NCBI GenBank assembly: GCA_030248065.1
Contig: JASAMV010000365.1
Location: forward strand, 38,103-102,102
Direction of reading: 5' to 3'
Source of the DNA: Rhynchonema sp. JSB1_4
Taxonomy: Eukaryota; Nematoda; Chromadorea; Monhysterida; Xyalidae
DNA: 64,000 nucleotides
The notes under the pieces are model-generated. The model was not told the origin of the DNA. It made no database searches and was given only the letters and a program-made list of their open reading frames with translations. The position numbers and the translations under genes are program-made. Positions 31,384-64,000 of the stretch are shown in pieces (positions within the stretch are counted from its first letter, which is position 1; each line of letters begins with the position of its first letter).

Positions 31384-31531
31384 GTGTGATCTGGCGGCTC
31401 AATATTATTTTATGCAGGTGGTGGTAGCGTAGCTGGCAGAACTATGGGGAATTGTTTTACAATTACACGCGATTATTGAGCAAAAAATAAATTTGTTCAC
31501 AATGTTCTACAAGTCTGAAACTTAATATTAA

Positions 31532-33193: not shown

Positions 33194-33799
33194 TTAAAGG
33201 TGTTGTACGGGGAATTTCAAAATCGTTTGCCAGAATTGCTATTCGTAGGTTCGCTATTCATCTACACAATCAAAAACATCATTTTTCAGACTCGATTTTT
33301 TTGAACTTTGGTGCACAAAGTGTCCAGACCCATGGTTTCGCTGGAGGCGCGTGGAAGCATTTTTCGGTCACCCTTTAAGTTGGGCAAAAAACGTGGTTTT
33401 TTCTATGTGTTTGGTCAATTTTTCAGCCACTCTTTGCGCAGATAGCATAGTTATTAAAGTGTGATTCAACCGGAAGCATTGATCAACAATCTGGTGAAGA
33501 CAGCTTCTCGAAATTCCATCCACAAAAATAGTTATGACTTTTTAAGTATTTTTCTCCTCGGCCTTTTTTGGGCTCAGCACAAAATTTCCTTTTTTGAGCT
33601 GTATCCCGGCTTGGACAAGGAATTTTCAAAAAATATTTTGCATACGTAATATACCCGTCAGATATAATGGTTTAATACACAAACTCGAATTCGATAAAAT
33701 TTGACCCCGTCCGTATGAAAAACGTTCGACTTTCTCAAGCAAAGTGTCTTGATTAAACGAGTCTTTCTTTAGAAAACTTATTGATTTTTTGAAGAAAAT

Positions 33800-44149: not shown

Positions 44150-45016
44150 ATGGAACCTCAACCTCAAATCATGTATCCGAAGGTGCACATCCCTCATTGG
44201 GACGGGAAGAGCAGTTTCAAGGAATGGATGGACCTGTATGAAACGAAGGGGAACATCAACAGATGGACCGACGAGATGCGCTGGCGCAGCCTTTCCGAAT
44301 ATGTGCCGCTGCACATCACAAAAGGTTTCATCCAGACGTTACCACTGGATGTTCAAACCGATTGGTCGAAATTGAAAGCCGCACTCACAGTTGCCCTGAG
44401 CAACCCGCGCGAACCACAGTACGCCAGACGTCAATTGCATCGAGTCAAGAATCAACCGTCGGAGAGCATCGATGAATATTATGCCCGCGTGATGCAGCTG
44501 GGCGCGAGCGCATTTCCAACGAAGTCACAGGCCCAATTGGACGAGGAACTAGCTGCGCCGTTCCTCGAGGGACTGCCAATCGAATATCAACGACACATCA
44601 CGCTGGCCACGATCTACAAATCGGAGTCAACACCGACCGTCGATTCCATTAAGGCGTGCTGGAAAGTCGCCAAAGAGTTGCTCCAATTGGACGAATACGT
44701 ACACGATCAGACGCCGATCGACGTCGCTTCGGTGCTCAAGGCCGAACGAAAACCGCAACAACCCAGCCAGCGTGGGTTGCCTCGTCATCGACGCACCGAG
44801 ACGGACCTGGCGACCGCCATGACGCAACTTCAAACAGAACGTCGTATGCCCAAATGCTTTCGTTGCCAAGGACTCGGGCATATTGGACGCTTCTGTCCGA
44901 TCTACGGAGATCACGTCGACCAACAACCCACACCGCAATATCAACCTCATCTTCTTAGCTCAAGTTTTCATCCTCTAAGTACCAACTCCATCCCTTTAGT
45001 ACCTTATCTCCAATAG
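44150..45016 (+). CDS. gag: Retrotransposon Gag polyprotein, 288 aa
   Basis: The structural protein that packages the element RNA into virus-like particles. It starts at the first ATG of the frame (MEPQPQIMYPKVHIPHWDGK) and ends at TAG. Residues about 10-180 have the layout of the Retrotrans_gag capsid domain: HIPHWDG near the start, then WMDLYETKGNINRW, then the helical core with LPLDVQTDWSKLKAAL and the FLEGLPIEYQ motif. Residues 236-249 form a perfect CX2CX4HX4C zinc knuckle (CFRCQGLGHIGRFC), the nucleocapsid signature. The frame stops about 40 residues after the knuckle. It appears intact, with no frameshift or stop. It lies between the LTRs with a 1.3-kb leader; no pol follows, and the 600 bp between its stop and the PPT is T-rich and non-coding. 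Confidence 0.92.
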   Translation: MEPQPQIMYPKVHIPHWDGKSSFKEWMDLYETKGNINRWTDEMRWRSLSEYVPLHITKGFIQTLPLDVQTDWSKLKAALTVALSNPREPQYARRQLHRVKNQPSESIDEYYARVMQLGASAFPTKSQAQLDEELAAPFLEGLPIEYQRHITLATIYKSESTPTVDSIKACWKVAKELLQLDEYVHDQTPIDVASVLKAERKPQQPSQRGLPRHRRTETDLATAMTQLQTERRMPKCFRCQGLGHIGRFCPIYGDHVDQQPTPQYQPHLLSSSFHPLSTNSIPLVPYLQ

Positions 45017-46924: not shown

Positions 46925-47640
46925 ATCAAAAAGGCTTGATTTTTCGGAGTGTTTCGTTTATCATTTGTCACACCTGGCGTTTCGTGCAATGCTTTGGTAT
47001 TGGTCGCACAATGACTTTATAAGAATCTACGAGAACGCATTAGCGTTTCGCAGTACTTTGAGATTAGACCACGAACTAGGAAAAAGCTGGATTTGGTCGT
47101 TGGTAATGTTCTTATCAGAAAGATAGGTTAATGTGATGAAATCGTGTGGCAAACATTTTTTCCAACATGCACGTGAAACATCAGCGTGCTCGAAAAACTG
47201 ATTTTTCCCTATACCTCACGTGTTATATCGGCGATGCTGGTGTGAACGCGTGTGATTGGTTTTGAAAGATGTTTTGATTGTTTTCTAGTTGTAGTCAAGC
47301 CATAACAAAACGCTGAAAATTTGAGCTCGATCGGGCAACGGGAAAGTGGTTTTTCAGACACCCGAAAATCGTGACTTCCGGCGGCCACACTTTATGCTAC
47401 CATTGCTATCTCCTCCCAGGAAACTGAACCGATCCGGTCGAGTCATGTACCAATCGATTTGTCTCATCGAGATCTAGGGATCGCAAAAAAAGCAAAAAAT
47501 AATATTCATTATATCGCGAGAAATTGAGGTTGAAAGTTTGCATGCGAATGTGGGCGCAGTTTGCTGTGGCGCTAAGCGCGCCAAGTGGGCGCTGATTGGT
47601 TGTAAATTCGCGCCTTTTCTTTTTCACTTTTTTCTTTTTC
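46925..47640. other. Gene-free stretch
   Basis: Includes one TTGGTCGCACAATGAC mariner-type end at about 46998-47026 without its partner, and GTGAAACATCAGCG at 47173. No gene is supported. Confidence 0.4.
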
Positions 47641-48905
47641 TTTTTTGGTGCAGCGGTGCTTGGCAGAGCCGGCCCGTGCTCCCAATCGGCCGGCCCGGCC
47701 CGGCACTATCTTCAAAAACGCTGGCCCGGCCCGGCCCGAATCAAAAGCCCAAAATCGCGGCCCGGCCCGGCCGCCCCGATTAGGACCCCTGCATGGACCC
47801 CATTTGGGGCTGTATTTGGGGGATTATTGGGGGTCACTGACCCTCATTTTATTTAGGAGGGGGATGCTGCCCGGCGCAGTCCTCCAAATCGCGGATGCAA
47901 GAATACAGGTTGGAGAGGTTGGCTTGCTTTGTTTTTGGTTGGGTTTTTTGAGGTTTGGGGGCATAGTTTTTTTTTCAAAATTCACTGGGTGCAACTTGCA
48001 CCTAATATGTCAAATTCTTGGTGCAACTTGCACCTAGAATTTTGTTTTACGAACAAAGTGTGAAAAATCTAGGTGCAAGTTGCACCTAACCTCCAGTTTT
48101 TAGGTGCAATTCTGAAATTTTAGGTGCAAATTGCACCTAAAAAGTGTCTAAAAAAACCTATGTTTGGGGGGTTTATTCTGGGCGGTCTGCATTTTGGGGG
48201 GTGGCTATATTTGGGAGGTGATTCAGTGAGGAGGGGGCCCGGCCCGGTTGGCCCGATTGCGACCTGATTTAGGGGGCTGTATTTGGTGGGGGGGGCTTTA
48301 TTTGGGGCGGGGGTGATTCACTGACCCCATTTAGGAGGGGGGCAGCTCGGTCCGGCCTAATCCTCAAAATCTCCGTCCCGGCCCGGCCCGGCCAGAACTA
48401 AACGCCCGAAATCGCGGCCCGGCCGGCCCGATTGCGACCTCTGGACGGTCTGCATTTTGGGAGGGCTATATTTGGGGGGTTATTCAGTGAGGAGGGGCCC
48501 GGCCCGGTTGGCCCGATTGCGACCTGATTTAGAGGGCTGTATTTGGTGGGGGGGGCTTTTGGGGGGGGGTGATTCACTGACCCCATTTAGGAGGGGGCCC
48601 GGCCCGGCCCGGCCCGGCCTGCCCCGGCGCGGCCGGCCCGATTGCGACCTCATTTAGGGGGGCTGCATTTGGGGGGGCTGATTCACTGACCCCATTTATT
48701 TATTAGCAGGGGGTGTGGCCCGGCTCGGCCCGGCCCGGTCCGGTCCGAACCAAAAGCCCAAAATCGCGGCCCGGCTCGACCTCTGGGGCTTTTGTTTGGG
48801 GGGGGGGCTTTTTTGGGGGGGCAGAGGTCGCAATCGGGCCGGCCCGACCTCGATTTTGGGCTTTTGGCTCGGGCCGGGCCGGGCCGGGCCGGGCACCCCG
48901 GCCCG
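47640..48905. repeat. G/C-rich minisatellite cluster
   Basis: Repeated GGCCCGGCCCGG tracts alternate with GATTGCGACCTGATTTAGG, GGGGGGGCTTT and GATTCACTGACCCCATTTAG blocks, with unit lengths of about 100-160 bp (48240, 48490, 48590, 48650). Many runs of five or more G on the plus strand suit G-quadruplex formation. Open frames here are composition artefacts. Confidence 0.85.
47988..48145. repeat. Cluster of TAGGTGCAAGTTGCACCTA palindromes
   Basis: Five perfect or near-perfect palindromes of the type TAGGTGCAAGTTGCACCTA lie at about 47990, 48018, 48070, 48103 (half) and 48121, separated by 15-45 bp. Confidence 0.85.
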
Positions 48906-49763: not shown

Positions 49764-51017
49764 GTGAGCTTTATTTTGGAATTTTTCGGTGGGCTTCATT
49801 TTGGAAATTTTTGCGAAATTTTTTTTGAAGATATAGCGACGCATAAACTTTTGTCAGAATTGTTGCGTAAGGGCATCGGCCTCATGAACGGGCGCCGGGA
49901 CTGTGGTTAATTTGGGCTGAGGGGCATTTTGTGGTAGAATTGGCACATTCTGCCTGTGTCCGCGAGTGCAGTTTCTGTGATCTGCTGCCGCCCTAGGGAG
50001 CTCGTCGCCGGGGCAGATGCACTTGAGCACGCCACCTACTGTCACTCGCCAGACAGCTAGCAACGCGCCCGGACCGACAAGAGTCACGCCGAAGTGACCG
50101 TCTCAGCGCGCAAGTCAGCCCTGGACCAAAATCCACACGCCTCGCGATGGCAACTCGGACGGCGCGGCTTGATCCTGGTGACAATCTAGTCACCCGCTTT
50201 CCTGCAATAAATGAAGCACAAGCAAACGGTCTCAGGCACGCAAGCACAAAACCAATAAGACAAGCCCAGCAATCTAGCTGGCTGTTTCGCTTCCACGTAT
50301 TGCACGAAAAGCACCCCGAAGTCGACTTCAACAGCACGTTTTACGCTATATAACGAATAACGGAAATAACAGGAATGAAAGATAGATTTAACGGCAATAA
50401 TATCAAATATTCAATAAAATATCTCGCGACTCCAAAACGGGCAGAAACACACAACGACGAACACTGAAAAATCTGATTTACGAGAAGGGAGAATTTACGA
50501 TTTACGGAAGAGAAATCAAACGACGATAGAGATCAACGCTGAGCCAGTCCATTTGAATTTCCATGCTCAGCAACAGTCAACACTGTCCGAACAGACGACT
50601 TTCAGCTTGCAGACGACGATATGAAGACGGCATATGTCCAATGTCACATCTCCCCGCACCAGTTCCTTCAAATGCCCTCATTTGATCGATGTTGAATGAA
50701 GAAGAATGGAAGCTGTTCGTGTCCACCCGGCCATAGTTGGAGTAGGCCTTGAAGAAACCGTCGAACGAATAGGGATCGCAGATGGCACCGACGACGAATT
50801 GAATAGCACACCAGCGATTGAGATGGAATTGAATTGAATAGAATTGACGTGTGGATATAGCAGTCAGGATACGGGTTTTCACCAGTCACCGAAGTGGGTT
50901 TCACCGTACCTTGCCGAAGCAAGAGGTGTGGGTTACTCACCCCAAATCCCAGACGAACACCCGCAGGTGATACACCGCTCGTACCGGTTTAAGTCCTGAC
51001 CGATAATAGAGCAGCTG
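49764..51017. other. Stretch without a supported gene
   Basis: GC content rises toward that of the giant gene. Several short frames exist on both strands (for example 50577-50882 minus), but none shows a domain or a clear splice pattern. It may hold 3' exons or untranslated sequence of the minus-strand giant gene. Confidence 0.3.
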
Positions 51018-51245
51018 CTAGCCCATAGGCGCAGGCTGATCCACGATGGAGACGGTTTCGGCAGCGAAGGTGGACGGCAAGCTGGGTAGACGACCAGCCA
51101 ACCCCTCGAAGGTTGTCACCTCAGGTGAAGTAGTCCTGTCCGGTGACCGCCAGAACAGCACGACGCCAGCGTCGTAGAAGGAACGAGTCGCGCACATCGA
51201 ACATTGCATCAACGTTTCGCCATCACACAAACGAGCCGTGCTGTT
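51018..51245 (-). CDS. Possible additional coding segment, minus strand
   Basis: A minus-strand frame reading LCDGETLMQCSMCATRSFYD and then AGVVLFWRSPDRT to a stop, with base composition like the giant gene and an acceptor-like AAC AG upstream near 51255. It lies 500 bp beyond the giant gene stop on the same strand. It could be an exon of a neighbour or a relic. No homology is recognised. Confidence 0.25.
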   Translation of the reverse strand, partial: NSTARLCDGETLMQCSMCATRSFYDAGVVLFWRSPDRTTSPEVTTFEGLAGRLPSLPSTFAAETVSIVDQPAPMG

Positions 51246-51642
51246 GAATGGTTTTCTGTGTCAAACAGGGAGTCAAACAAAGCGACCAACGCCGAGCTTA
51301 CATCGCCGTAAGCTAAATGGTCATAAACAGGGCAATTTACCTCTTACTAGGCAGGGTCACAATACAAAAGTGTAAAACCGCAGTCAAACTGTGCGGACAA
51401 GCACCGGTTTTACCAGGGGACTGCAGTGTCTCCTGTGCCCCAACCCTGGATGACTTTAATATCAAACCATTCAAAGCGTACAATCACCGTACGAAGTCAT
51501 CACACAAAATAAAAACGCGGTAATCACCCGCTGACACTTTGTCGCGAGTGAAACATCACAATTCTTACCATAGAAATGTGGAAATAAAATTTGCGCACAA
51601 AAAGTCAAACCATAAAAATTAGAAATGCGGCTAAGAGGCATT

Positions 51643-51740
51643 ATGCACCTCACCATACGCATTATGCACGCATGGATTTATAAAGGGGCCTTATGCACCC
51701 CACCACACGCATTATGCACGTGTGGATTTTCACACCACAC
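51643..51740. repeat. Short direct repeat downstream of giant gene
   Basis: Two adjacent copies of GCACCYCACCAYACGCATTA followed by TGCACG, about 50 bp apart, just past the stop codon on the minus strand. Each contains the GCATTATGC palindrome, so the 3' untranslated RNA could fold into hairpins. Confidence 0.7.
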
Positions 51741-51749
51741 AGTCACGTT

Positions 51750-54700
51750 CTAGTGCTGCATGCCCGAGGACATGCCAGCACCACCCTGATCATGCTCATC
51801 ACGACGACTCTGATGACCACCACGTCCAAATCGCGGGTCACGCGACTTTGAACGATCACCACGTTGGTCACGTCGTTTCGCTGAGCTCGGTCGTGCCTCG
51901 TCCGGTTCACGCGATGCCGACTGTTGTTTGGCACGCTTGCTGCGCCCCATCGCGGGCGGACCCTGAGGACCTTGTTGGCCCCAGCCACTTGGTCCAGCCG
52001 CACCTGACACATTTGGCGCTTGACCAGCCGGCAATGGTTGGTACACCTGTTTCGTTCGGTAACCCGCTGGCGGAAACTGCGCCCGCTGTTGCGGCTGTTG
52101 TTGTTGTTGTGGCGGATAAATGACTTGCTGCTGTGGTTGCTGCTGGCGCAATTGCTCCTGCAACGAAGCAATCTGCTGCTGCATCTGTTGCATCGCAGCA
52201 CCACCACCCAGCGGCACCAAGTTCGGACCACTCAACGGACCACGGCCGCCGCGACCTCCACGGCCGCCGCCACGACCACCACTGGCCGAACCACCACCTC
52301 CACGGGGTTGTCGCGCATGCCATGGTTTGCGCGAACGCGACCTGCCACGACCGTGTCCCTTCGCCGGGAACCCACGTCGCGGTGGAATGTCGTTGTCGTC
52401 ATACATGGCCAGTCCCGCAGTGGCACTACTCGACGTAGTCGCCACAGTGCCGTGGGACGCCGGACGAACTGGTTGTTCTTCACGCGGTCGCTGAACATCG
52501 TGCGCCGACTGCGTACTTGTCGGCCTTCCACCCCCCTCCTGCTCTTGCGACTGACCCAGTCGCAGCAGGTGTGTGAGGAATTTCATGTAGTTCGACGAGT
52601 CCAACTGTGTCGGATCGACATGACTTCGATAGTCATCAATCTCGGTCACGAGACGTGCGTCCTCCCAATCAGCAGACTTGGCAACACCACCCAGATAGTC
52701 CTCAATGTCTTCAACAGACACCCAGTTGCCATCCGGGCGTGTCAGTTTGTCACACGCCATCAGATCATTGCTCGGCCACGGTTCCATCGGTGGCGTGATC
52801 TGATAACACGACTCTTTCACGTTCCACCACAAATAGGCCGCAAATATGCGCGAGAAATACACCAAGCGCATTTCCGAACCGGCCAACAATCGGTATCTCT
52901 GACCACTGGCCCTGTCCTCGTACCACAATTGTGCGTAGAAGTCACCCCACGGACATTTCGTGTGCGAATGAGCACACACCGCACAGATGCCGATATTCTT
53001 GCCCGTCCACGGGTACGGCAGTTTCGACACGAATGAATCGAGCAGTGTCAAATTTTGATAGTTCAGTTTTGCGCCTCGCAATTTCGTGGGCGCTTCGAGT
53101 TTGTTGTCCAAATTGGACGTGCCCATCATGACATCTGCCACATTCACCGGACCATGCCCATTGGTCTCATAGAACTCATCAATCCATGCCTCCAGCTCGT
53201 TCAGGTCACCGATCGGTTTCGGGCTGAGCATGAACGTCAAATGATGATTGCGCTGTCGCAGCTCAATCATCATGTCCACAATGCGGGTCAACGCAATGCG
53301 GCATTCGACCATTTTCGACGTCCAAACTCCATAGTAACGGCCCGTGTACACCTGATACCACATGCTACCAATGTAGGCATGACGGGCAGGTGTACCGATC
53401 GCACTTTGGTACTGTTGGATCGTGCCCTGGAACTGGCTGGGCTCAATGACCTCACGCGTGGCATCATCCAGCATGGGTTCATAGCATTGCGGATTGCAAC
53501 ATTCATCCTGCTGTGCGTCGTCATTCCAATACACGTCAGCCGTGCAACGCACACAGCACTTGATACTTTGGAACACGACCCAGGGTACGGCGGGCATGTC
53601 GTACAGATTCATTTTCACACCCGTATTAGGCGGCATTGTCGGGTATTTAGCCATATTGAGCTGCTCTTGCAAAGTCAGCTTGTTCCAACCCGACACGCGT
53701 TCTTTGGCACTCAAGCCCTCTTTGTCCGGGTTCAACTGAACAGCGAATTGTGAGTACGGACGGCCCTCATAGTGGCCATGTGTCAAGCCCCGTGACAATG
53801 GGTCAACCAGGTTGTACTCATCCATCACTCGAATGTAGATTTGTGATCGCGGTTTCAGAAATTTGAGTGACACGCGATATTCGGGTTTGAGTGTGGGATC
53901 GTACCAGACCACATCATCAGGCAATTGGGCATAGATCTCTTCATGCAAGGCCTCAAATCCGTCTGAGTCTGAACGGATTTCACCTGAGCCCTGCGATGGT
54001 GGTTCATTCACAGAATCCACGTCATCGGCCTCAGCCTGTGGCAACGGTGAGGCCTCCGGCTCTTCCATAGCCAGCTCACCACCGTGCACCGGTTCATCAC
54101 CGATCATTCTGCGCTGAGCCTCAAACGTGCGCAGCTGTTGGTAACTGCGTTGCAACATGTTCACAGTTTCTTGTGGCTCGCAATTCATCAAGTCACCAGC
54201 TGACTGCAGCAGCTTGTATGCCACGGTCGTGTCATCTTCGGCCTGTGCGCGCACTATCGTCTGGTATCGCTTGCCACACAGCGAAATCACCTGCTTAGCC
54301 CAATCACGGACTGGCGGACTAGCATGATTCAGCAAGTCGACAATGGTCTGATATGAGGTCGGCACGCCCGGCGGCAAAGCAAATGCCTGGGCCATGTGCA
54401 TGCCGATCAAGCAGTCAGCATGGGCCTCAATATTCGATTGAGTTGGTCGGCCAAATATGGTCGGCGTGTTTGGTGCCGACAACGGATCGGTCAACGGCAT
54501 GGGCTTCAGCCGATGTTTCATGGCAGTGATTTGCGCATTCAAAATATCACACAGGCGCAACATCTCTTCGCCTTCAGCCTGCCAGATTTCCTTGTCCACA
54601 GCCTGAGCCATCATGAACACCAAGTACAGATGGTACAGGGTCACTTCTGAACCCGCTGGCTCTGCGGACTGACTGACACGTTCAATCAACGTGCGGGCTT

Positions 54701-57700
54701 TGTCGACCCAAGCCTTGACATCCGATTTTGACTGCGGGATATCGTCCCATTTCAACTTGAACTGTTCGAACGTGACGAGTCCGAACTCGCTTTCGCGCTG
54801 TGGCATTGTCTGACGTGCCTTGCGCAACCGTTCAGCACACGAATCAGCAGCCTGATCATCAGGTTCAGCTGTCGTGAACACGACCTCACCAGCGTCGGTT
54901 TTGTTCACCAGAGCCTGCGCCATCTTGCGCACCGAATAAGCGCTCAAGCCACAGGTCGGCTCGTTCTGTTCATGCCGAATGGAATTGTCGGCCAACGCCA
55001 GCGCGGCTTGCAGCGAACTGCCAAGCTCCTCCAGTGAACCCAGTGGCAACCTGGGCGAGTCACCAGTGTATCGTGGTGGCCAATCTGTCTGACGATTGAA
55101 CTGATATGCCGGCAGATTTTTCAAGTGACCGGCCAATTGCATGTAAATGCCACACACGGTCACGCGTTTCAGCTCCTCTGTCTTGGCCGGCATGCTCATG
55201 TAGCCGCGCGACAGTGGATTGTGGAGCCGTTTGTGATGACCATAACGCAGGTCATGCAGCACAAAGAAGGCAAAATTCAGTTCCTTCAAAACAGCATCAG
55301 TGACCACCTTTTGATGCACTGCACCACCGGTCCTTTTGTACCATTTCGCGGGCACTTTGGTACGGGTCTGATTGTACCTCAAACGGAACAGCTTATGTTC
55401 CTCATCCTGATCAGACACCGAATCCTGCTTGCTCGTCGGCACACAGTCCTTCAGCAGACGTGGCTTTTTCATGTGCAACAAATGCACATTGCCGACACTT
55501 TGTGGAACCACAGTCTGGTTGTCATATTTCAGTGCCAATGTTGCATAGGCCAACTGCACCGTCGTGGTGTATCGCTCACCACTCAGAAACGGCAGTTTGG
55601 ACGTCTCCAGATAGTCACTCATGGCATCTGACGCCAGTATCATGGACATGTGCTGTGTGTGTTCGATCGGTTTGATGAAATCGATCTCGGGAACACCAAA
55701 CTCAACCCGGTCATTCGTGACGGCAGCCGTACGTTTGCTTTCAAGCATGGCTGGTTGTTCGTTCAGTCGGCCCGCAGCCGACGCCAGCACATATGCATTG
55801 CCACACACAAGCGGCACATTGATCTCGGGGTCAATCTCGAACCCAGTCCACATGTGCATTTTGTACTCCTGCGCCTGATCCGAAGAACAGAGCGCCACAG
55901 CCACGTGATTGCACACCAGTTGTGTGTAATTCGAGTTGTCAGACGTGGCGAAGTACATGACCGGTGTACTGTCAAACGGTTCGGTCAGACCTTGCGAGTC
56001 AATCGCAATGTATGGTGACCGAAATTCCTCCACCGGCGCACCACTTCGGTACAACGATCGCTTGTACACGTTCGGCTTCATCACATTCATGTACAGCGGG
56101 CCAGCCAATCTCGACTCGGCCGCGTGGTTGAGCAAGGCGAAACAGGCCATCGGGTCCCGTTCACCTGCGGTGTTCAGACTGTCCTCCACGCCCACTGTGC
56201 TGATGGGCTGCATCAGTTCACAACACACATGCACGCTGCGCAAATAATACTGCAGCATCAGATCACCAGCCTCCAGCAACAACGCTGTGGTAGGCACTTT
56301 TGATGGGTCCCTGGTGCCCATGACTGCGGTACTGATCTTAGCACCAGCCAAATTGCAGAATTCACGGCCCACTTCGACAATACGCAGCTCAACCTGCTGT
56401 CGATCCAGTGGTTTGTTTGTGGCCGTCATTTCGTCTGTCAGGATTTTGGAGAACGATTTTGCACAGTGCAACACTGTGGCCAGCACCAAGTCGACAGGTG
56501 CCTCGTTCTCGCGCCACGCGATTGGTTGTTGTTTCAGGTCTTGTTTGAAATCATCACGTGCGTTCAGCAGCACATCAGGTGCTTCAACACCATTCATGCA
56601 CGTGAGTGGATTGGTCAGGCGTCCACTTTCAACGAACTGCAGCATGGTTTGCAGCGAACCACGCAAAGGACGCATAATTTCGTCATCGTACCGTTTGGGA
56701 TCACACACAGCAAGCACATACATGCAATCAATGCCCTCTTGCACGTCTTGTGCGGCATACCAGTACTTGCACTGTGTGGATTCGTCGTTCAAATTGCCCA
56801 TGTGCATACGGTCCAGCCAACCAGCATGGTACATGTCTGCACCCGGCACCTCACCGGCCGTATAGGCAAAATCACACGGTTTATTTTCAAGATACGTGCT
56901 GCTCGTATAGCGACGCATCTTGTCTTTCTGGGCCTTCATCGTGTGGCTGTCACGCATGATATGCAATGTGCCCAATGTCATCATTTGGTGCGATGGGCCA
57001 CCATGTTCTTCATTCATGCTCATGGACATTGGCAGTTTGCGCGAATCAAACACGATCGCGGACATATCACAGCCAAATGCGCGAGCAAACGCAACCTGAT
57101 CACCGTGTTTGCGATTGCGACGGTCCTGATCATGGGTACCGTGCATATAGAACACGCCGGCGTTCTGTAGGTCATTCACCGACGGATCGTCACAAAACAG
57201 CTGCTTGAACTCATCACACGGTTCGTCTGAGCCAGGTTTGTTCACACAACCGGCCTCAATGATCCACACGACACCTGTGAAGAATGCCACCTGCAGCAGC
57301 ACCAGAATGTCGTAATCACACCATTCCTCTGTTGTGGTGTGAATCACCTCGTGTGTGGTCCAGTAGGGCAGCACGCCCCACTTCTCCATGCACATGTGCA
57401 TGAGCAGCTCGTTCGCACTTTTGGTCTTCTTTTTCAGTGCCGTGAAAAAGCTCGTGTCGAAATCTGTGGACTGGAAGTGATCGAATTCAGCATCGATCAT
57501 GGCACCTCCCAGCATTCGACGAGCTCGCATGGCGATCTTTGTGAACTCGACAAAATGGTCATATGAGTCCACCACAATGACCTGTTTGATCACGCCCAGT
57601 GGCCTACGTGCGGCCAACATGCACTGATACCAGCTCATGATCAGATTATACATCATCGTGATCTTGGCTGATGTGTTTTGGGCACGCGCACCATATTCCA

Positions 57701-58832
57701 GCGTGACAATGCCCTTCAAGGCAGTCACCATGTATTTGTGCGTGTTTTGAATGCCGATGTAACTGGCTGCCTGTTCCATCTTGTGCAGCACTGCCTGCAG
57801 CACTTCAGTCGACAGTTCACGAGCCGTACACGCCAAGTACAGCACTCGTGTGTTTTCGAACATTTTGGCCATGCCCCGATATGAGTTCGGCACAGCGCAC
57901 GGCTCATTGGTGTTTGCTGCATTGCACGCACCATCCCAGCCTGTGCGCATCGGGTCCAACATAGCCATATGGTGATTCGGCATTCGTTTATTGACCGAGA
58001 TCACACCCGGTTTCATGGCATCGAACCAACCGATTTTGTTGTTCTTGGCATCACGGCCAAAGAAACCCTTCGTGGCCACGGTCATGTGGTCCACCTGTCG
58101 CAAATCGGTGTTCTTTTCGCGTTCAATCTCACTGAACGGCACTGGCAGCATGTGCCCGGTCGACAATGCCTCTTGACGTTCTTCATAACGTCGGCTGATA
58201 TTCAAACCGTCAACCGGTTTGTGACGTTGCGCGCGTCCGAACAGGTCCACCTGACCAATGTGCAACACTTTGCACAAACGACGCAAGCGCAGCAACGGGC
58301 TGCCAGCAAACACGCCCCGCAACCAGTCACTGTGGATGCGGTCGGGCTGTTTGTCGTTCACCACCACCATCGGTCGATTCAGTGGATCCGGGTCCCAAAA
58401 ATTCACCTCCGACGACCCGGGGGCCCGGTCCATCTTGCGGTACTGTTCCAGTTTCAGACCCAGTCGGTGCAACGGCTCACCGCTGAGCGTCACAGTGCCT
58501 TGTGGTGTCTGGAATTTCATCACACCAGCACCTTGCGAGTTAGCAACACTCGCACCTGGGGCAGGTTCATGTGCCCCGGCACTGGGATTCGGCACCACCT
58601 CCATCTGAGTCTCGGTGCCCGCACTGGCACCTGCGGTCGAACTGGAACTGGTCGTAACCGGGTCGGTGTGGGTGACAGACTCCCCGGCAGCAGCCTCCAG
58701 CTGCTCCTGAGCCACTTCCATGTCCACCTCGTCACCACCGCCCAACAAAGCCTCTTCTTGCTCTGCAGTCAACCCCGTCTCACCTGGATCTGCACGTTTC
58801 CGAGACCTCGATCTCTTGTCCCGTTTGCTCAT
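51750..58832 (-). CDS. Giant single-exon protein, 2360 aa, family unknown
   Basis: One uninterrupted 7.1-kb frame. The start was set at 58832 (MSKRDKRSRSRKR) because the paralogue at 61858 begins there and has an in-frame stop three codons upstream; the longer frame to 58940 opens only with TTG. Layout: basic/RS-like residues 1-15; Ser/Glu-rich low complexity to about 105; a long well-folded-looking body from about 105 to 1570; an acidic Pro/Ser linker at about 1590-1630; a second folded region to about 2080 with two Cys clusters (CCVRC...CCNPQC near 1758-1782; CAVCAHSHTKC near 1950-1965) that could bind zinc; then a tail with an RGG box (about 2170-2205), poly-Gln/Pro (about 2214-2250) and an Arg/Ser/Gly-rich end. 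The tail implies RNA or RNP binding. No enzyme, helicase, polymerase or GTPase motif was found. GC is clearly higher than in the flanks. Candidates: cellular RNP protein, virus-derived structural protein, or selfish-element gene; undecided. Confidence 0.93.
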   Translation of the reverse strand: MSKRDKRSRSRKRADPGETGLTAEQEEALLGGGDEVDMEVAQEQLEAAAGESVTHTDPVTTSSSSTAGASAGTETQMEVVPNPSAGAHEPAPGASVANSQGAGVMKFQTPQGTVTLSGEPLHRLGLKLEQYRKMDRAPGSSEVNFWDPDPLNRPMVVVNDKQPDRIHSDWLRGVFAGSPLLRLRRLCKVLHIGQVDLFGRAQRHKPVDGLNISRRYEERQEALSTGHMLPVPFSEIEREKNTDLRQVDHMTVATKGFFGRDAKNNKIGWFDAMKPGVISVNKRMPNHHMAMLDPMRTGWDGACNAANTNEPCAVPNSYRGMAKMFENTRVLYLACTARELSTEVLQAVLHKMEQAASYIGIQNTHKYMVTALKGIVTLEYGARAQNTSAKITMMYNLIMSWYQCMLAARRPLGVIKQVIVVDSYDHFVEFTKIAMRARRMLGGAMIDAEFDHFQSTDFDTSFFTALKKKTKSANELLMHMCMEKWGVLPYWTTHEVIHTTTEEWCDYDILVLLQVAFFTGVVWIIEAGCVNKPGSDEPCDEFKQLFCDDPSVNDLQNAGVFYMHGTHDQDRRNRKHGDQVAFARAFGCDMSAIVFDSRKLPMSMSMNEEHGGPSHQMMTLGTLHIMRDSHTMKAQKDKMRRYTSSTYLENKPCDFAYTAGEVPGADMYHAGWLDRMHMGNLNDESTQCKYWYAAQDVQEGIDCMYVLAVCDPKRYDDEIMRPLRGSLQTMLQFVESGRLTNPLTCMNGVEAPDVLLNARDDFKQDLKQQPIAWRENEAPVDLVLATVLHCAKSFSKILTDEMTATNKPLDRQQVELRIVEVGREFCNLAGAKISTAVMGTRDPSKVPTTALLLEAGDLMLQYYLRSVHVCCELMQPISTVGVEDSLNTAGERDPMACFALLNHAAESRLAGPLYMNVMKPNVYKRSLYRSGAPVEEFRSPYIAIDSQGLTEPFDSTPVMYFATSDNSNYTQLVCNHVAVALCSSDQAQEYKMHMWTGFEIDPEINVPLVCGNAYVLASAAGRLNEQPAMLESKRTAAVTNDRVEFGVPEIDFIKPIEHTQHMSMILASDAMSDYLETSKLPFLSGERYTTTVQLAYATLALKYDNQTVVPQSVGNVHLLHMKKPRLLKDCVPTSKQDSVSDQDEEHKLFRLRYNQTRTKVPAKWYKRTGGAVHQKVVTDAVLKELNFAFFVLHDLRYGHHKRLHNPLSRGYMSMPAKTEELKRVTVCGIYMQLAGHLKNLPAYQFNRQTDWPPRYTGDSPRLPLGSLEELGSSLQAALALADNSIRHEQNEPTCGLSAYSVRKMAQALVNKTDAGEVVFTTAEPDDQAADSCAERLRKARQTMPQRESEFGLVTFEQFKLKWDDIPQSKSDVKAWVDKARTLIERVSQSAEPAGSEVTLYHLYLVFMMAQAVDKEIWQAEGEEMLRLCDILNAQITAMKHRLKPMPLTDPLSAPNTPTIFGRPTQSNIEAHADCLIGMHMAQAFALPPGVPTSYQTIVDLLNHASPPVRDWAKQVISLCGKRYQTIVRAQAEDDTTVAYKLLQSAGDLMNCEPQETVNMLQRSYQQLRTFEAQRRMIGDEPVHGGELAMEEPEASPLPQAEADDVDSVNEPPSQGSGEIRSDSDGFEALHEEIYAQLPDDVVWYDPTLKPEYRVSLKFLKPRSQIYIRVMDEYNLVDPLSRGLTHGHYEGRPYSQFAVQLNPDKEGLSAKERVSGWNKLTLQEQLNMAKYPTMPPNTGVKMNLYDMPAVPWVVFQSIKCCVRCTADVYWNDDAQQDECCNPQCYEPMLDDATREVIEPSQFQGTIQQYQSAIGTPARHAYIGSMWYQVYTGRYYGVWTSKMVECRIALTRIVDMMIELRQRNHHLTFMLSPKPIGDLNELEAWIDEFYETNGHGPVNVADVMMGTSNLDNKLEAPTKLRGAKLNYQNLTLLDSFVSKLPYPWTGKNIGICAVCAHSHTKCPWGDFYAQLWYEDRASGQRYRLLAGSEMRLVYFSRIFAAYLWWNVKESCYQITPPMEPWPSNDLMACDKLTRPDGNWVSVEDIEDYLGGVAKSADWEDARLVTEIDDYRSHVDPTQLDSSNYMKFLTHLLRLGQSQEQEGGGRPTSTQSAHDVQRPREEQPVRPASHGTVATTSSSATAGLAMYDDNDIPPRRGFPAKGHGRGRSRSRKPWHARQPRGGGGSASGGRGGGRGGRGGRGPLSGPNLVPLGGGAAMQQMQQQIASLQEQLRQQQPQQQVIYPPQQQQQPQQRAQFPPAGYRTKQVYQPLPAGQAPNVSGAAGPSGWGQQGPQGPPAMGRSKRAKQQSASREPDEARPSSAKRRDQRGDRSKSRDPRFGRGGHQSRRDEHDQGGAGMSSGMQH

Positions 58833-58947
58833 CTTGACTCGCTTCTTGCTGTCCGACGATGTTGTTGTTATCACAGCGCTTGAAGTCGCAAAATTCGAGT
58901 GCGATAAATGATAATGGCAGTCGAAATTCAGACTCTGCAAAAGTGGA

Positions 58948-58957
58948 GTGAAACATC
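58948..58957 (-). promoter_or_regulatory. GATGTTTCAC motif upstream of giant gene 1
   Basis: On the minus strand GATGTTTCACTCCAC lies about 116 bp before the ATG. The other arm has GATGTTTTACTCCAC at 61731, about 120 bp before its ATG, with one substitution. The same 12-mer GATGTTTCACTC recurs about 200 bp beyond the stop codon (51549), in the same orientation. Confidence 0.45.
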
Positions 58958-59681
58958 ATTTTGTGCCGTCACGCACAAACATCACAGCAAACAAAACGCG
59001 CGAGCGAACAGTGTGGGCTGCCGCATCCATTTTCACAAGCCGCCTCGACCGGCATAATGGCTTTAAAGTGCTCCCCGCACAACAGCGTCAGCCTCACACC
59101 GCATGAGCGTGCTGCAAGCCAGATTCACGGTCGTTTCAACAGAAACGCCCCATTTCTGGCCTCAAAATGTGGAACTGCAACAGTGAAGCCGTCAGTGGCC
59201 ACAGACAGAATGAATATCTGGGTGCCTCAGTGGCACAGACTGCCAGGCCCCGGGGGTTGATCACCCCCCAGGGTCTTTTCGACCTGGCCCTAGGCAAAAC
59301 ACGCCCAAAAATGGTATTCCGCCCGTTTTCACAGACAGCCACAGCTGAAATAGCTGTTTTCCTCACAGTTTTGAGCCAAAATGTGGACAAAACGTTCGGG
59401 CCGGAGTGGCCAACTCCCGGCTTTTTGGGGTTTTCGACCTCGCACGTCTGCGGAAACGAAAAATCAGAGCAAAACTCAGCTCCCCCCCCAGTTGCGCAAC
59501 ACCAACGCAACTTTTCACAGGTTTTTGCGGCAAATCAGTGGCATCGGCCCACCTCTCCCTGCGATCCAGCGGGATTCCTGCGATCTAAAACGTTATTTGC
59601 AAATGAAATGAGAAAACAAAATGCGAAACGAAAGGAATTTCGTCTCCCTTTTCGCAGAATTTCTCTTTCTTTGTTTTGCAA

Positions 59682-59703
59682 TTTACGGTCCACGGACCGT
59701 AAA
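59682..59703. promoter_or_regulatory. Perfect 10-bp-arm palindrome, arm 1
   Basis: TTTACGGTCC and GGACCGTAAA separated by AC, about 850 bp upstream of the gene 1 ATG. The identical palindrome (loop GT by strand) is at 60984-61005 in the other arm at about the same distance from its ATG. It could be a dimeric protein site or a hairpin. Confidence 0.75.
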
Positions 59704-59880
59704 GTCTCGTTTCGGTGCGTCACTTTCCATGCGTCAGGGGTCACCACACCTGCAGTGGGGATAACGCATTCGCACATGCAAACAAAACATGGCGCACGTA
59801 AGCGCCAACAAAACAAAACTGAAACATCAGTTAGTTCAACGCAAAAAGGCTCGTTTCGACAGAGCCAACGCAAAATTTAA

Positions 59881-60825
59881 CGAAAATAACGGACACAGCC
59901 CGAGCAAAGGGCTGGTCAAACATAAAATAACGTGGCAAACGCAACAAAATAGAGTCAAACTCAAACTAACTAAAAAAAAATATAAGCAAAAAAAAGGATA
60001 TAAAATAAAATCTCTCCAATTCCCCCCCCCCCCAATCCTTTTTCCCTTTTTCAAAAACTTTGCGTTTGGCATACACACGAGTGACAGTCAATGTTTGGAT
60101 TGGAGGAATTTATGAGATATGGATCGCTGGGTATCACCTCTCAGTCATTGGTTTTTGAAGCGACAAAGGAGGTGCGGGAGTAGTCCTCGCTTTGCATTTG
60201 GTCATACACCACTTTTCTCTCACCACCTCTCTCCTTCTCTGCCGACCCTTCCCCTTGTCTCCCTCTCTGGGCGTCGCAACGACAAATGCTGGTTGTTCAA
60301 GCAAATGCCTCCACTGCTCGCCCCCCGGTCTCTTGTTTGGGGGCTTTTGAGGGGAAGTTTGTGCTGGTGCGTTTCTGGGTGGTGGATGGACAAAGTGAGC
60401 TGGAAAGATGGCGCAAGGAGGGAAATTGAAGATTGTGGTTGGTGACGGGTTGGGTGTATGACGAAGGGCAAGGCGAGGTAAAGTTGCTGAGCAGGTCGTT
60501 ATGGTGCGGGTGTTCAGAAGATGAGGTGTATGGTGGAGAGGGGACAGCGATTCAAGTGATCTAAACTGGTTGTGCGAGAGATTCATGAAGGTGTGGCTGG
60601 TACTCGGTTGTGTATGTGCCGAAACGCAGAAGTTAGGAAGAGTTGTGAAAGGGAGAGGATGCGCGCTAAATTGCGGGCGGACGGTGGAGAGATTGAGGAG
60701 GAGCAAAATTGAATATGATATAGTACAATTTATTTTGTTATATTTTTTTTTTGTCGTTTGAGTTTGACTTTATTTGTTGGTTTCACGTATTTAGTTGCTG
60801 TCGGTGTTGGTTTTTTTTCGTTAAA
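59881..60825. other. Centre of the inverted duplication
   Basis: The outer parts (59881-60000 and 60690-60825) are still weakly inverted copies of each other (GTCAAACTCAAAC, TTTAACGAAAA). The inner 60010-60690 is unique. It contains a C12 run and switches from pyrimidine-rich to purine-rich near 60360. A minus-strand frame of 190 codons (60134-60706) is Pro/Thr/Ser-rich and follows this skew; it is not supported as a gene. Confidence 0.6.
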
Positions 60826-61857
60826 TTTTGGTTGGCTCTGTAAACGAGCTTTTTCGTTGAACTAACTGATGTTTAGTTTGTTTTGTTGGCGCTTACGTGC
60901 GCCATGTTTTGTTTGCATGTGCGAATGCGTTATCCCCACTAGGTGTGTGACCCCTGACGCATGGAAAGTGACGCACGAACGACTTTACGGTCCGTGGACC
61001 GTAAATTGCAAAACAAAGAAAGAGAAATTCTGCGAAAAGGGAGACGAAATTCCTTTCGTTTCGCATTCTGTTTTTCTCATTTTCTTTTGCAAATACCGTT
61101 TAGATCGCAGGAATCCCGCTGGATCGCAGGGAGAGGTGGGCCGATGCCACTGAGATGCCGCAAGAGCCTGTGAAAAGTTGCGTTGGTGTTGCGCAACTGG
61201 GGGGGGAGCTGAGTTTTGCTCTGTTTTTCGTTGCCGCAGACGTGCGAGGTCGAAAACCCCAAAAAGCCGGGAGTTGGCCACTCCGGCCCGAACGTTTTGC
61301 CCACGTTTTGGCTCAATTTTGTATGAAAACGTCTATTCTAGCTGCGGCAGTCCGAAAAATGGGCGGAATCTTGACTTTTGGGCGTGTTTTGCCTAGGGCG
61401 GGGTTGGAAAGACCCTGGGGGGAGCGCTACCCCCGGGGCCTGGCAGACTCTGTCACTGAGGCACCTGATTGTCTGCTCCGTCTGTGGCCTCGGACGGCTG
61501 CAGTGAAACATTCACTGCAATTTTGAGGCCATTGAGGGGCGTTCCTGAAGAGAACGACCGTGAATTTAGGCTTCAGCTCGCTCACGCGATGTGTGGCTGA
61601 CGCTGTTGTGCGGGGAGCACTAAAAAGCCATTATGCCGGTCGAGGCGGCTTGTGAAAATAAAAGCGGCAGCCCACATTGTCCGCTCGCGCGTTTATTTTG
61701 CTGTGATGTTTGTGCGTGACAGCACAAAGTGATGTTTTACTCCACTTTTGCAGAGTCAAAAATTCGATTGCCGTTATCATTTCACCGCATTCGATTTTGT
61801 GACGTCAAGTGCTGCGAGAAACAACAACATCGTTGGACGGCAAGTGACTGAGCCGAG
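60826..61857 (+). promoter_or_regulatory. Upstream arm of giant gene 2
   Basis: Inverted counterpart of 58833-59880, colinear over about 1.03 kb with scattered substitutions and small indels. It keeps the 22-nt palindrome (60984-61005), AATCCCGCTGGATCGCAGG and the CGGTCGAGGCGG block. It shows GATGTTTAGTTTG and GATGTTTTACTCC where arm 1 has intact GATGTTTCA. Confidence 0.6.
60984..61005. promoter_or_regulatory. Perfect 10-bp-arm palindrome, arm 2
   Basis: TTTACGGTCC and GGACCGTAAA separated by GT, about 853 bp before the gene 2 ATG; counterpart of 59682-59703. Flanking bases have diverged while both stems are unchanged. Confidence 0.75.
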
Positions 61858-64000
61858 ATGAGCAAACGAGACAAACGATCGAAGTCTCGGAAACGGACCG
61901 ATCCAGGTGAGACGGGGTTGACTGCAGAGCAAGAAGAGGCTTTGTTGGGCGGTGGTGAAGAGGCTGACATGGAGGTGACTCAGGAGCAGCTGCAGGCTGC
62001 TGCCGGAGAGTCCGTCACCCACACCGACCCGGTGACAATGAGTTCCAGTACGACTGCAGGTGCCAGTGAGGGCACCGACACCCAGATGGAGACGGTGCCG
62101 GATCCCAGTGCCGGGGCACATGAACCTGCCCCTGGTGCGAGTGTTGCCAACTCGCAAGGTGCTGGTGTGATGAAATTCCAGACACCACAAGGCACTGTGA
62201 CGCTCAGCGGTGAGCCGTTGCACCGTCTGGGTCTGAAACTGGAACAGTACCGCAAGATGGACCGGGCCCCTGGGTCGTCAGAGGTGAATTTTTGGGACCC
62301 GGACCCACTGAACCGACCAATGGTGATGGTGAACGACAAACAGCCCGACCGCATCCACAGTGACTGGTTGCGGGGCGTGTTTGCTGGCAGTCCGTTGTTG
62401 CGCTTGCGTCGTTTGTGCAAGGTGTTGCACATTGGTCAGGTGGACCTGTTCGGACGCGCACAACGCCACAAACCGGTTGACGGTTTGAACATCAGCCGGC
62501 GCTATGAGGAGCGTCAGGAGGCTCTGTCGACCGGGCATATGCTGCCAGTGCCGTTCAGTGAGATCGAACGTGAAAAGAACACCGATTTGCGGCAGGTGGA
62601 CCACATGACCGTGGCCACGAAAGGTTTCTTCGGCCGTGATGCCAAGAACAATAAAATCGGTTGGTTCGATGCCATGAAACCGGGTGTGATCTCGGTGAAC
62701 AAACGAATGCCGAACCATCACATGGCTATGTTGGACCCGATGCGCACAGGCTGGGACGGTGTATGCAATGCAGCAAACACCAATGAGCCGTGCGCTGTGC
62801 CGAACTCATATCGGGGCATGGCCAAAATGTTCGAAAACACACGAGTGCTGTACTTGGCGTGTACGGCTCGTGAATTGTCGACTGAAGTGCTGCAGGCAGT
62901 GCTGCACAAGATGGAACAGGCAGCCAGTTACATCGGCATTCAAAACACGCACAAATACATGGTGACTGCCTTGAAGGGCATTGTCACGCTGGAATATGGT
63001 GCGCGTGCTCAGAACACATCAGCCAAGATCACGATGATGTATAATCTGATCATGAGCTGGTATCAGTGCATGTTGGCCGCACGTAGGCCACTGGGCGTGA
63101 TCAAACAGGTCATTGTGGTGGACTCATATGACCATTTTGTGGAGTTCACAAAGATCGCCATGCGCGCTCGTCGAATGCTGGGAGGTGCCATGATCGATGC
63201 TGAATTCGATCACTTCCAGTCCACAGATTTCGACACGAGCTTTTTCACGGCACTGAAAAAGAAGACCAAAAGTGCGAACGAGCTGCTCATGCACATGTGC
63301 ATGGAGAAGTGGGGCGTGCTGCCCTACTGGACCACACACGAGGTGATTCACACCACGACAGAGGAATGGTGTGATTACGACATTCTGGTGCTGCTGCAGG
63401 TGGCATTCTTCACAGGTGTCGTGTGGATCATTGAGGCCGGTTGTGTGAACAAACCTGGCTCGGATGAACCGTGTGATGAGTTCAAGCAGCTGTTTTGTGA
63501 CGATCCGTCGGTGAATGACCTACAGAACGCCGGCGTGTTCTATATGCACGGTACCCATGATCAGGACCGTCGCAATCGCAAACACGGTGATCAGGTTGCG
63601 TTTGCTCGCGCATTTGGCTGTGATATGTCAGCGATCGTGTTTGATTCGCGCAAACTGCCAATGTCCATGAGTATGAATGAGGATCATGGTGGCCCATCGC
63701 ACCAAATGATGACATTGGGCACATTGCATATCATGCGTGACAGCCACACGATGAAGGCCCAGAAAGACAAGATGCGTCGCTATACGAGCAGCACGTATCT
63801 TGAAAACAAACCGTGTGATTTTGCCTATACGGCCGGTGAGGTGCCAGGTGCAGACATGTACCATGCTGGATGGCTGGACCGTATGCACATGGGCAATTTG
63901 AACGACGAATCCACACAGTGCAAGTACTGGTACGCTGCACAAGACGTGCAAGAGGGCATTGATTGCATGTACGTGCTTGCTGTGTGCGATCCCAAACGGT
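61858..64000 (+). CDS. Giant protein paralogue 2, N-terminal 714 codons
   Basis: Starts MSKRDKRSKSRKRTDPGETG with an in-frame TGA three codons upstream, and stays open to the window end. It aligns without gaps over most of its length to residues 1-714 of the protein encoded at 51750-58832. Differences concentrate in the Ser/Glu-rich segment (residues 30-90). In the folded body they are few (for example V to M in the VVVND stretch, A to V, E to D in NEEHGG). Of six changed codons in three 60-bp blocks compared, five are synonymous. It is transcribed away from gene 1. Function unknown as for gene 1; the C-terminal RGG/Gln tail would lie outside the window. Confidence 0.93.
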   Translation, partial: MSKRDKRSKSRKRTDPGETGLTAEQEEALLGGGEEADMEVTQEQLQAAAGESVTHTDPVTMSSSTTAGASEGTDTQMETVPDPSAGAHEPAPGASVANSQGAGVMKFQTPQGTVTLSGEPLHRLGLKLEQYRKMDRAPGSSEVNFWDPDPLNRPMVMVNDKQPDRIHSDWLRGVFAGSPLLRLRRLCKVLHIGQVDLFGRAQRHKPVDGLNISRRYEERQEALSTGHMLPVPFSEIEREKNTDLRQVDHMTVATKGFFGRDAKNNKIGWFDAMKPGVISVNKRMPNHHMAMLDPMRTGWDGVCNAANTNEPCAVPNSYRGMAKMFENTRVLYLACTARELSTEVLQAVLHKMEQAASYIGIQNTHKYMVTALKGIVTLEYGARAQNTSAKITMMYNLIMSWYQCMLAARRPLGVIKQVIVVDSYDHFVEFTKIAMRARRMLGGAMIDAEFDHFQSTDFDTSFFTALKKKTKSANELLMHMCMEKWGVLPYWTTHEVIHTTTEEWCDYDILVLLQVAFFTGVVWIIEAGCVNKPGSDEPCDEFKQLFCDDPSVNDLQNAGVFYMHGTHDQDRRNRKHGDQVAFARAFGCDMSAIVFDSRKLPMSMSMNEDHGGPSHQMMTLGTLHIMRDSHTMKAQKDKMRRYTSSTYLENKPCDFAYTAGEVPGADMYHAGWLDRMHMGNLNDESTQCKYWYAAQDVQEGIDCMYVLAVCDPKR

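What the first reader, a model, noticed from the sequence alone, without database searches (positions are those of the whole stretch)
51750..64000. Head-to-head pair of giant intronless genes in a large inverted duplication
Seen: a 2360-codon single-exon gene on minus and the first 714 codons of a near-identical copy on plus, sharing about 1 kb of upstream sequence around a 0.7-kb unique centre. The surroundings are transposon-rich, so two such long intact frames imply active constraint, gene conversion between arms, or very recent duplication. Most changes seen are synonymous, which favours constraint. The arrangement resembles a bidirectional expression unit, or the inner part of a large element with inverted gene arms.
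Basis: partly seen in the sequence, partly recalled or inferred. Interest (0 to 1): 0.88.

Follow-up and report, generated by a model that had tools for sequence, protein, structure and literature searches.

The report
Giant extra gene in nematode retrotransposons
The two giant open genes are not host genes but copies of a very large, strongly conserved third gene of unknown origin carried by a roughly 19-kilobase virus-like jumping element of a nematode, and their mirror-image arrangement may be only an accident of insertion or of genome assembly.

Summary
In detail: a 2360-codon single-exon frame (51750-58832, minus), the first 714 codons of a second copy (61858-63999, plus), shared upstream DNA, a 0.73-kb centre, mostly synonymous differences (dN/dS 0.066). 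The window ends where its contig ends, so arm 2 cannot be followed. The interpretation changes. The host is a nematode. [quoted passage not shown] LTR 0.67 kb, ATAG target duplication, gag-pol frame of 2543 codons). It is the element's ORF3. A second family (73% identical in pol, 33% in ORF3) has the same order, a third probably too, and weak matches suggest more, in frames up to 2495 codons. ORF3 is under strong purifying selection and has no detected relative in Pfam, NCBIfam, PDB sequences or a 5.8-billion protein set where pol finds 1182. A splice-acceptor-like sequence lies about 100 nt before its ATG. It has no evident signal peptide or membrane anchor, and has a zinc-knuckle-like motif and a basic tail. 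I infer an RNA-binding accessory protein working like CERV of Cer1 (moderate confidence). The head-to-head pair is two different 5'-truncated copies and may be a misassembly.

The parts
49976..50648 (-). 3' LTR of copy 1 (673 bp, TGTGA...TCACA)
   Evidence: Aligned with five other LTR copies; C1705 has it at both ends in direct orientation; 40 genome matches scored of 109 candidates, this one included
50649..51749 (-). 1.1-kb region between ORF3 stop and 3' LTR, ending in a short purine-rich tract (GGTGCGGGGAGA) directly before the LTR
   Evidence: sense sequence before the LTR; role as polypurine tract inferred
51750..58832 (-). ORF3 copy 1: 2360 codons plus stop, intact
58931..58944 (-). Candidate 3' splice acceptor of copy 1 (ACTTTTGCAG|AGTC), exon would start 102 nt before the ATG
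   Evidence: TTTT(N)CAG present in 7 of 7 aligned copies; family B has TCTATTTTCAG upstream of its ORF3; splicing itself not shown
58833..59995 (-). Spacer of copy 1 between ORF3 and the former pol end (homology stops 46 bp after the pol stop); gag, pol and 5' LTR missing
59996..60417 (.). Part of the centre with no match elsewhere in the assembly
   Evidence: the DNA search skips simple repeats and very common words
60418..60728 (+). Degenerate remnant of the pol 3' end belonging to copy 2 (73% identity over 266 bases by BLAST; 9 private deletion events; stops in all three frames)
60729..61857 (+). Spacer of copy 2; candidate splice acceptor at 61744-61757
61858..63999 (+). ORF3 copy 2, first 714 codons, open to the contig end

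Best explanation
Both giant frames are copies of ORF3 of a giant Ty3/gypsy LTR retrotransposon family of a nematode. The element reads 5' LTR - gag-pol (one frame, 2543 codons in C1532) - 1.2-kb spacer - ORF3 (2360 codons) - 1.1 kb - 3' LTR, about 19 kb in all. Shown: the order, the LTRs, a target duplication, the pol domains, purifying selection, and the same pol-ORF3 order in a second family. Inferred: ORF3 is made from a spliced (cis- or trans-spliced) subgenomic mRNA using the acceptor about 100 nt before its ATG, as env and CERV mRNAs are; the protein is soluble, binds RNA through a zinc-knuckle-like motif (near residue 1950) and a basic, low-complexity tail, and serves the element's own RNA (nuclear export, packaging or particle structure) rather than membrane fusion. 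The window holds two different 5'-truncated copies lying head to head; whether that join exists in the chromosome is undecided. The confidence given is for identity as ORF3 of this element; for the RNA-binding accessory role it is about 0.35.
For: Copies on other contigs. gag-pol or pol directly upstream on the same strand in C1532, C3381, C3362 and C1705; Pfam RVT_1, RT_RNaseH, H2C2, rve, CCHC and weak Retrotrans_gag. C1705 has two direct LTRs (5 substitutions in 644 aligned bases) with ATAG on both outer sides. Family B: C2778 has the pol end (68% over 88 aa) and then an open frame of 2423 codons, 33% identical to ORF3 over residues 62-2074; C56 carries the matching gag-pol, 73% (same tail as C2778 by eye). 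Four contigs outside A and B appear in both the pol and the ORF3-core searches (C4018, C4835, C4847, C1973); in 4 of 4 the core match lies 2.26-2.74 kb downstream of pol on the same strand, against 2.51 kb in four family A copies; three of them score identically, so they count as about one further family. dN/dS 0.052-0.206 over 18 family A comparisons of more than 300 codons and 0.032-0.046 over 3 family B pairs. Private changes: arm 2 13 synonymous, 0 nonsynonymous; arm 1 10 and 1; neutral expectation 25% synonymous. Acceptor sequence in 7 of 7 aligned copies. Highest 19-residue hydropathy mean 2.2, inside a conserved core; CAVCxHxHT..KCPW shared by both families.
Against: No complete element was seen in one contig; the layout is read from several partial copies. 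No transcript data. No homologue and no usable structure: the single-sequence model of residues 61-1060 has mean pLDDT 32. Tail dipeptides: only RG/GR in family A exceeds shuffles clearly (18 against 10.1; 11 of 2000 shuffles as high); RS/SR (A 10 against 6.4, B 18 against 14.2) and RG/GR in B (4 against 6.6) do not, so 'SR/RGG protein' is composition, not proof. Family A ORF3 as a whole is slightly acidic (pI 6.2; B 8.4). SL1 (RF00198) gave no match here, but none in the 14 controls either.
Confidence: 0.88

Rival explanations
1. The head-to-head join is an assembly chimera: two contig pieces that both break just after pol were joined through a poor-quality centre.
For: The window ends at the contig end. 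Copy 1 stops 46 bp after the pol stop, and five other pol copies have a contig end close by: distance from the last matched pol codon to the contig end is 74 bp (C5094), 119 (C3871), 68 (C56), 258 (C2255), 172 (C4090). Inverted repeats of over 1 kb touch the contig end in 3 of 10 ends examined (C217 start, C217 end, C3286 start); C2778 start is a fourth when its two loci are compared. The centre has no other match.
Against: The arms differ by codon-structured substitutions with no ORF indel, so this is not a fold-back of one molecule. Four family A copies (C1532, C3381, C3362, C1705) run through the spot unbroken. The contig ends looked at were mostly chosen because they carry the element.
Confidence: 0.5
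2. The head-to-head pair is real: two 5'-truncated copies juxtaposed by insertion, deletion or an inverted-dimer step of replication; inverted pairs of related copies lie also at C2778 and C3286.
For: C2778: 559 aligned bases with 5 substitutions near the centre, 542 with 31 further out; C3286: arms of 1053 bases, 99.6%.
Against: All three touch contig ends; breakpoints differ between them; no LTR end was seen at the window junction.
Confidence: 0.45
3. ORF3 is an envelope or fusion protein, making the element an infectious retrovirus.
For: Position after pol with a splice-acceptor-like sequence is the env position; ORF3 diverges faster (33% identity) than pol (73%) between families.
Against: No evident signal peptide (judged by eye), no clear membrane anchor by hydropathy, no Pfam env or PDB match.
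Confidence: 0.15
4. ORF3 was captured from an RNA or DNA virus (for instance a capsid gene).
For: LTR elements capture viral genes: a nodavirus gene in a Bel/Pao element of Bursaphelenchus (PMC5177903, passages read).
Against: No match to any Pfam family, to IMG/VR contigs by the pattern scan, or in the protein database.
Confidence: 0.25
5. ORF3 at this locus has been co-opted by the host and is selected in place, which would explain an intact frame beside a decayed pol tail.
For: Arm 2: pol tail with 108 private differences of 264 compared sites and 9 private deletion events, ORF3 with 13 synonymous and 0 nonsynonymous private changes.
Against: ORF3 synonymous sites of arm 2 are also young (dS 0.125-0.152 to the other family A copies), so selection in place does not explain the contrast; recombination, conversion or a bad consensus would.
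Confidence: 0.05
6. Bidirectional host gene pair, as first proposed.
For: Head-to-head orientation in the window.
Against: The other copies read lie behind pol in LTR elements, and the centre occurs nowhere else in the assembly.
Confidence: 0.02

Closest known systems
Cer1 and its CERV protein, C. elegans (PMC10309623; outline, abstract and 12 passages read)
   Same: Nematode Ty3/gypsy element; extra frame between pol and 3' LTR without homology outside nematodes; made from a spliced mRNA; highly divergent between species; not env-like.
   Different: CERV is 517 aa and shares exons with gag; ORF3 is 2360 aa. No sequence comparison with CERV was made. CERV's need in export of genomic RNA is shown by experiment, ORF3's role is not.
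Burro giant gypsy elements, planarians (PMC6431247; passages read)
   Same: Giant gypsy-like elements of an invertebrate with large extra coding capacity.
   Different: Burro puts recognisable domains (BIR, ankyrin, BCL2-like, env-like) into one 4873-aa gag-pol polyprotein; here the extra protein is a separate frame after pol without known domains.
ORF3 of bdelloid rotifer LTR elements (PMC5408684; passages read)
   Same: Non-envelope ORF3 after pol, described there as typically expressed from spliced messages.
   Different: Those are of recognisable kinds (GDSL esterase, DEDDy exonuclease, coiled-coil or membrane proteins, env).
Nodavirus-like gene in a Bel/Pao element, Bursaphelenchus (PMC5177903; passages read)
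   Same: Extra gene captured by a nematode LTR element.
   Different: A degenerate element with a recognisable RdRp; here a multi-copy conserved family.
Ogre and Retand elements, plants (Ogre from PMC6431247 passages; Retand PMC11963269 seen in a search listing only)
   Same: Long gypsy elements with extra frames or a long internal region.
   Different: Other hosts; no relation tested.

Membership tests
Ty3/gypsy (Metaviridae) LTR retrotransposon | Direct LTRs, TG...CA, short target duplication | tested here: met
   C1705: LTRs at 36079.. and 47061-47722, ends TGTGA/TCACA, ATAG on both sides. Tested in this one copy; the window copy shows only its 3' LTR.
Ty3/gypsy (Metaviridae) LTR retrotransposon | gag with CCHC knuckles and pol order PR-RT-RNaseH-IN | tested here: met
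   In the C1532 piece: CCHC 250-267, RVT_1 938-1097, RNase H 1187-1289, H2C2 1556-1610, rve 1630-1725; protease motif DSG seen by eye only; Retrotrans_gag below cut-off. Absent from both window copies.
Ty3/gypsy (Metaviridae) LTR retrotransposon | Primer binding site after 5' LTR, polypurine tract before 3' LTR | tested here: inconclusive
   TGGTGAGCCCGACAAG two bases after the LTR in C1705 and C1532, diverging in C3381; purine-rich GGTGCGGGGAGA before the 3' LTR. No tRNA was matched.
Retroviral/gypsy envelope protein | Signal peptide, ectodomain, transmembrane anchor | tested here: not met
   Hydropathy profile only, no dedicated predictor: best 19-residue mean 2.2 at residue 509 inside a conserved core; no env Pfam match
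CERV-like regulator (works like) | Env-position frame from a spliced mRNA | tested here: inconclusive
   Position met; acceptor sequence in 7 of 7 aligned copies; no RNA data
CERV-like regulator (member of) | Sequence homology and gag-shared exons | not tested
   CERV sequence was not held; sizes differ more than fourfold
Burro-type giant gypsy | Extra domains inside one gag-pol polyprotein | tested here: not met
   gag-pol frame of 2543 codons with ordinary domains found; extra protein separate
Head-to-head duplicated host gene pair | Both genes host genes outside mobile elements | tested here: not met
   Copy 1 has a 3' LTR; copies read elsewhere lie behind pol

The most novel reading that the evidence does not exclude
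ORF3 founds a giant protein superfamily, at least three and perhaps seven or more families in one genome, that has been a fixed, selected component of a nematode lineage of giant Ty3/gypsy elements since before those families split: a 260-kDa RNA-binding particle or nuclear protein with no relative in any known virus or cell, and the recurrent inverted pairs are dimer products of its unusual replication.
Probability: 0.3. Interest if true: 0.78.

Novelty: new variant of a known kind. Interest (0 to 1): 0.6.

Why it matters
LTR elements usually carry gag and pol and sometimes env. A conserved 2360-residue third protein, over a third of the element's length, with no relative found in a 5.8-billion protein set, suggests that a major viral-type protein class can remain unseen inside animal genomes. 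If it acts like CERV it would offer a second system for how nematode retroelements move unspliced RNA out of the nucleus; if it is structural, a new kind of retroelement particle. It also warns that giant intact orphan genes in invertebrate assemblies can be element genes.

Tried and rejected
Protein database with ORF3 alone (7215 candidates) and with a 5-row alignment (7999 candidates scored): none at E 0.001; pol as positive control gave 1182 of 3873 candidates. IMG/VR scan: 14 stretches matched a pattern, none confirmed. PDB by sequence and by profile: 2 and 3 rows, best E 0.21 and 0.4. Pfam at E up to 10 gave one row at E 0.4; NCBIfam at E up to 1 none. Rfam (gathering) and tRNA scans of the window: none. 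Structure of residues 61-1060 from one sequence: pLDDT 32, so no fold search was made. The second half was not folded: the machine was busy. Host co-option at this locus was set aside because the synonymous sites are young as well.

Local decoy: reversed and shuffled versions of ORF3 residues 430-720 against the loci held at that time in the local database gave nothing below E 0.63; no genome-wide decoy was run, so the weak rows rest on their E-values and positions.

Not resolved: whether families with about 60% pol identity (C1533 and others) carry ORF3; of the more distant pol contigs only four were seen with an ORF3 match, and others such as C1313, C3101 and C3507 showed none (50 candidates, all scored) and were not read. 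A confirming search with ORF3 residues 1700-2070 was asked for eight times and never answered.
Full report
What is there. The window is bases 38103-102102 of contig C217 (102102 bases) in a 204-Mb genome of 5747 contigs. The host is a nematode: 57 matches to the cuticle collagen N domain PF01484, against none in 14 control genomes; that this domain marks nematodes is recalled. The giant minus frame 51750-58832 (2360 codons) and the plus frame 61858-63999 (714 codons, open at the contig end) are as described. The inverted match is 56690-59995 against 60729-64000, 92.5% overall, 96% in the coding part, with no coding indel.

Where else it occurs. A protein search of the genome gave 24 matching stretches, of families A and B together (311 candidates, 20 scored). 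Copies on C3362 (full length, open), C3381 and C1532 (cut by contig ends), C1705 (3' part of ORF3 deleted) and C3229 (frameshifted) were read piece by piece. In C1532, C3381, C3362 and C1705 gag-pol or part of it lies directly upstream on the same strand; in C1532 it is open for 2543 codons and carries CCHC, RVT_1, RNase H, H2C2 and rve domains. C3362 lacks part of gag, and C1705's pol is broken.

Element ends. A 0.67-kb repeat begins TGTGA and ends TCACA. C1705 has it at both ends in the same orientation, flanked by ATAG on either side. Its two LTRs differ at 5 of 644 aligned bases, plus 18 gap positions, so the insertion looks young although its inside is deleted. The LTR search listed 40 matches (109 candidates, 40 scored); 7 of the 40 begin 1.75-1.92 kb from a contig's first base, so copies are probably under-assembled. 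Adding lengths (C1532 from its LTR to the ORF3 ATG, the window from that ATG to the end of the 3' LTR) gives about 19.0 kb.

Window copies. Copy 1 keeps its 3' LTR (49976-50648), ORF3, the spacer and 46 bp beyond the pol stop. Copy 2 keeps a degenerate pol remnant (60418-60728), the spacer and ORF3 to the contig end. Copy 1 lacks gag and pol, copy 2 all but the pol remnant. They are not sisters over the 714 shared codons: nucleotide differences are 3.9% between the arms, 1.6% between copy 1 and C3381, 2.4% between copy 1 and C3362. Divergence is uneven along ORF3 (between the arms dS 0.27 in the first 300 codons, 0.05 in the next 300), which suggests recombination among copies.

Selection. dN/dS is 0.066 between the arms, 0.052-0.206 over the 18 family A comparisons of more than 300 codons (highest with C1705, partly because its frame runs past a deletion) and 0.032-0.046 within family B (3 pairs). 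Changes private to one copy among six are 13 synonymous and 0 nonsynonymous in copy 2, 10 and 1 in copy 1, 7 and 1 in C3362, 5 and 0 in C3381, but 12 and 7 in C1705 and 13 and 8 in C1532; 25% synonymous is expected without selection. Between A and B dN/dS is 0.34-0.51 with saturated dS, which is not informative by itself.

A family of giant ORF3s. C2778 holds an open frame of 2423 codons, 33% identical to ORF3 over residues 62-2074, preceded by a pol end 68% identical over 88 residues. C56 carries a gag-pol frame 73% identical to family A in pol, with the same tail as C2778 by eye, and its contig ends 68 bp after it. A search with residues 430-720 at E up to 1 gave 46 matches; 22 lie outside families A and B, 9 of these at E below 1e-3, and 7 of the 22 sit in open frames of over 2000 codons (up to 2495). 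Four of the 22 are on contigs that also appear in the pol search (C4018, C4835, C4847, C1973), and in all four the match is downstream of pol on the same strand, at 2.26-2.74 kb; four family A copies have 2.51 kb. Three of these four give identical scores, so they support about one further family, C. Other distant pol contigs showed no ORF3 match and were not read. Four weak rows with frames under 190 codons are probably chance.

What the protein looks like. 264 kDa (family A) and about 270 kDa (family B), no evident signal peptide (judged from sequence, not by a predictor), one moderately hydrophobic stretch inside a conserved core. Both families share CAVCxHxHT..KCPW, close to but not the same as a CCHC knuckle, and a second cysteine cluster near residue 1760. 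Both end in basic low-complexity tails with NLS-like strings; RG/GR pairs exceed shuffles only in family A, RS/SR pairs in neither clearly. No relative was found in Pfam, NCBIfam, PDB sequences, IMG/VR or the protein database, while the same database returned 1182 pol relatives. The word-based search can miss very distant relatives.

Expression. TTTT(N)CAG stands about 100 nt before the ATG in 7 of 7 aligned copies, inside a variable stretch, and family B has TCTATTTTCAG upstream of its frame. That it resembles the nematode splice acceptor consensus is recalled, not tested. The closest parallel is CERV of Cer1, from a spliced mRNA and needed for export of genomic RNA (PMC10309623, abstract and passages). 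I judge a CERV-like or particle-related RNA-binding role most likely, at about 0.35; env is disfavoured.

The head-to-head join. Copy 1 stops 46 bp after the pol stop. Five other pol copies have a contig end 68-258 bp beyond their last pol codon: C5094, C3871, C56, C2255, C4090; four family A copies run through unbroken. Inverted repeats over 1 kb touch the contig end in 3 of 10 ends examined (a fourth end has only a 103-base match), and also at C2778. The centre matches nothing else. These suggest a possible chimera. Against that, the arms carry codon-structured differences. The pol remnant of copy 2 is 73% identical over 266 bases by BLAST and 25-55% per 60-column block with gaps counted, while its spacer and ORF3 are young; I have no good explanation other than recombination or a poor consensus.

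Novelty. Six literature searches (they listed 20 of 84, 20 of 171, 15 of 41, 12 of 36, 1 of 1 and 7 of 7 papers; listings read, four papers opened for passages) showed no description of a giant ORF3 in nematode gypsy elements; most subscription papers are not covered. I rate it a new variant of a known kind.

Noticed in passing
window 14411-16492: Tandem array, 129-bp unit, about 16 copies, 88% matches; related arrays on C3229 around 7866-11391 and 19441-19973.
   Followed up: no
window 13480-14158: Second tandem array, 204-bp unit, 3.3 copies, 96% matches.
   Followed up: no
window 31528-33197: 1.7-kb imperfect palindrome (76% to its own reverse complement); a 90% copy on C1532 (21136-22735) abuts the 5' LTR of the giant element there.
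   Followed up: partly
window 20442-21152, 22262-22974, 24431-25149: Three copies of a 0.71-kb repeat at 93-97%, the middle one inverted, with a more diverged copy near 5744-6398.
   Followed up: no
window 44150-45016: 288-aa frame with a weak Retrotrans_gag match below the curated cut-off.
   Followed up: no
window 564-3947: 3.4 kb duplicated at 99% further up the same contig (C217 30231-33613).
   Followed up: no
L026 1-1262 and 2531-3792 (start of contig C217): Inverted repeat, 97.9%, touching the other end of the window's own contig.
   Followed up: partly
L039 1-2679 (start of contig C3286): Palindrome with 99.6% identical arms made of family B ORF3 pieces with an internal deletion, again touching the contig start.
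   Followed up: partly
window 10001-12000: Strong strand asymmetry, GC skew -0.31 and AT skew -0.17.
   Followed up: no
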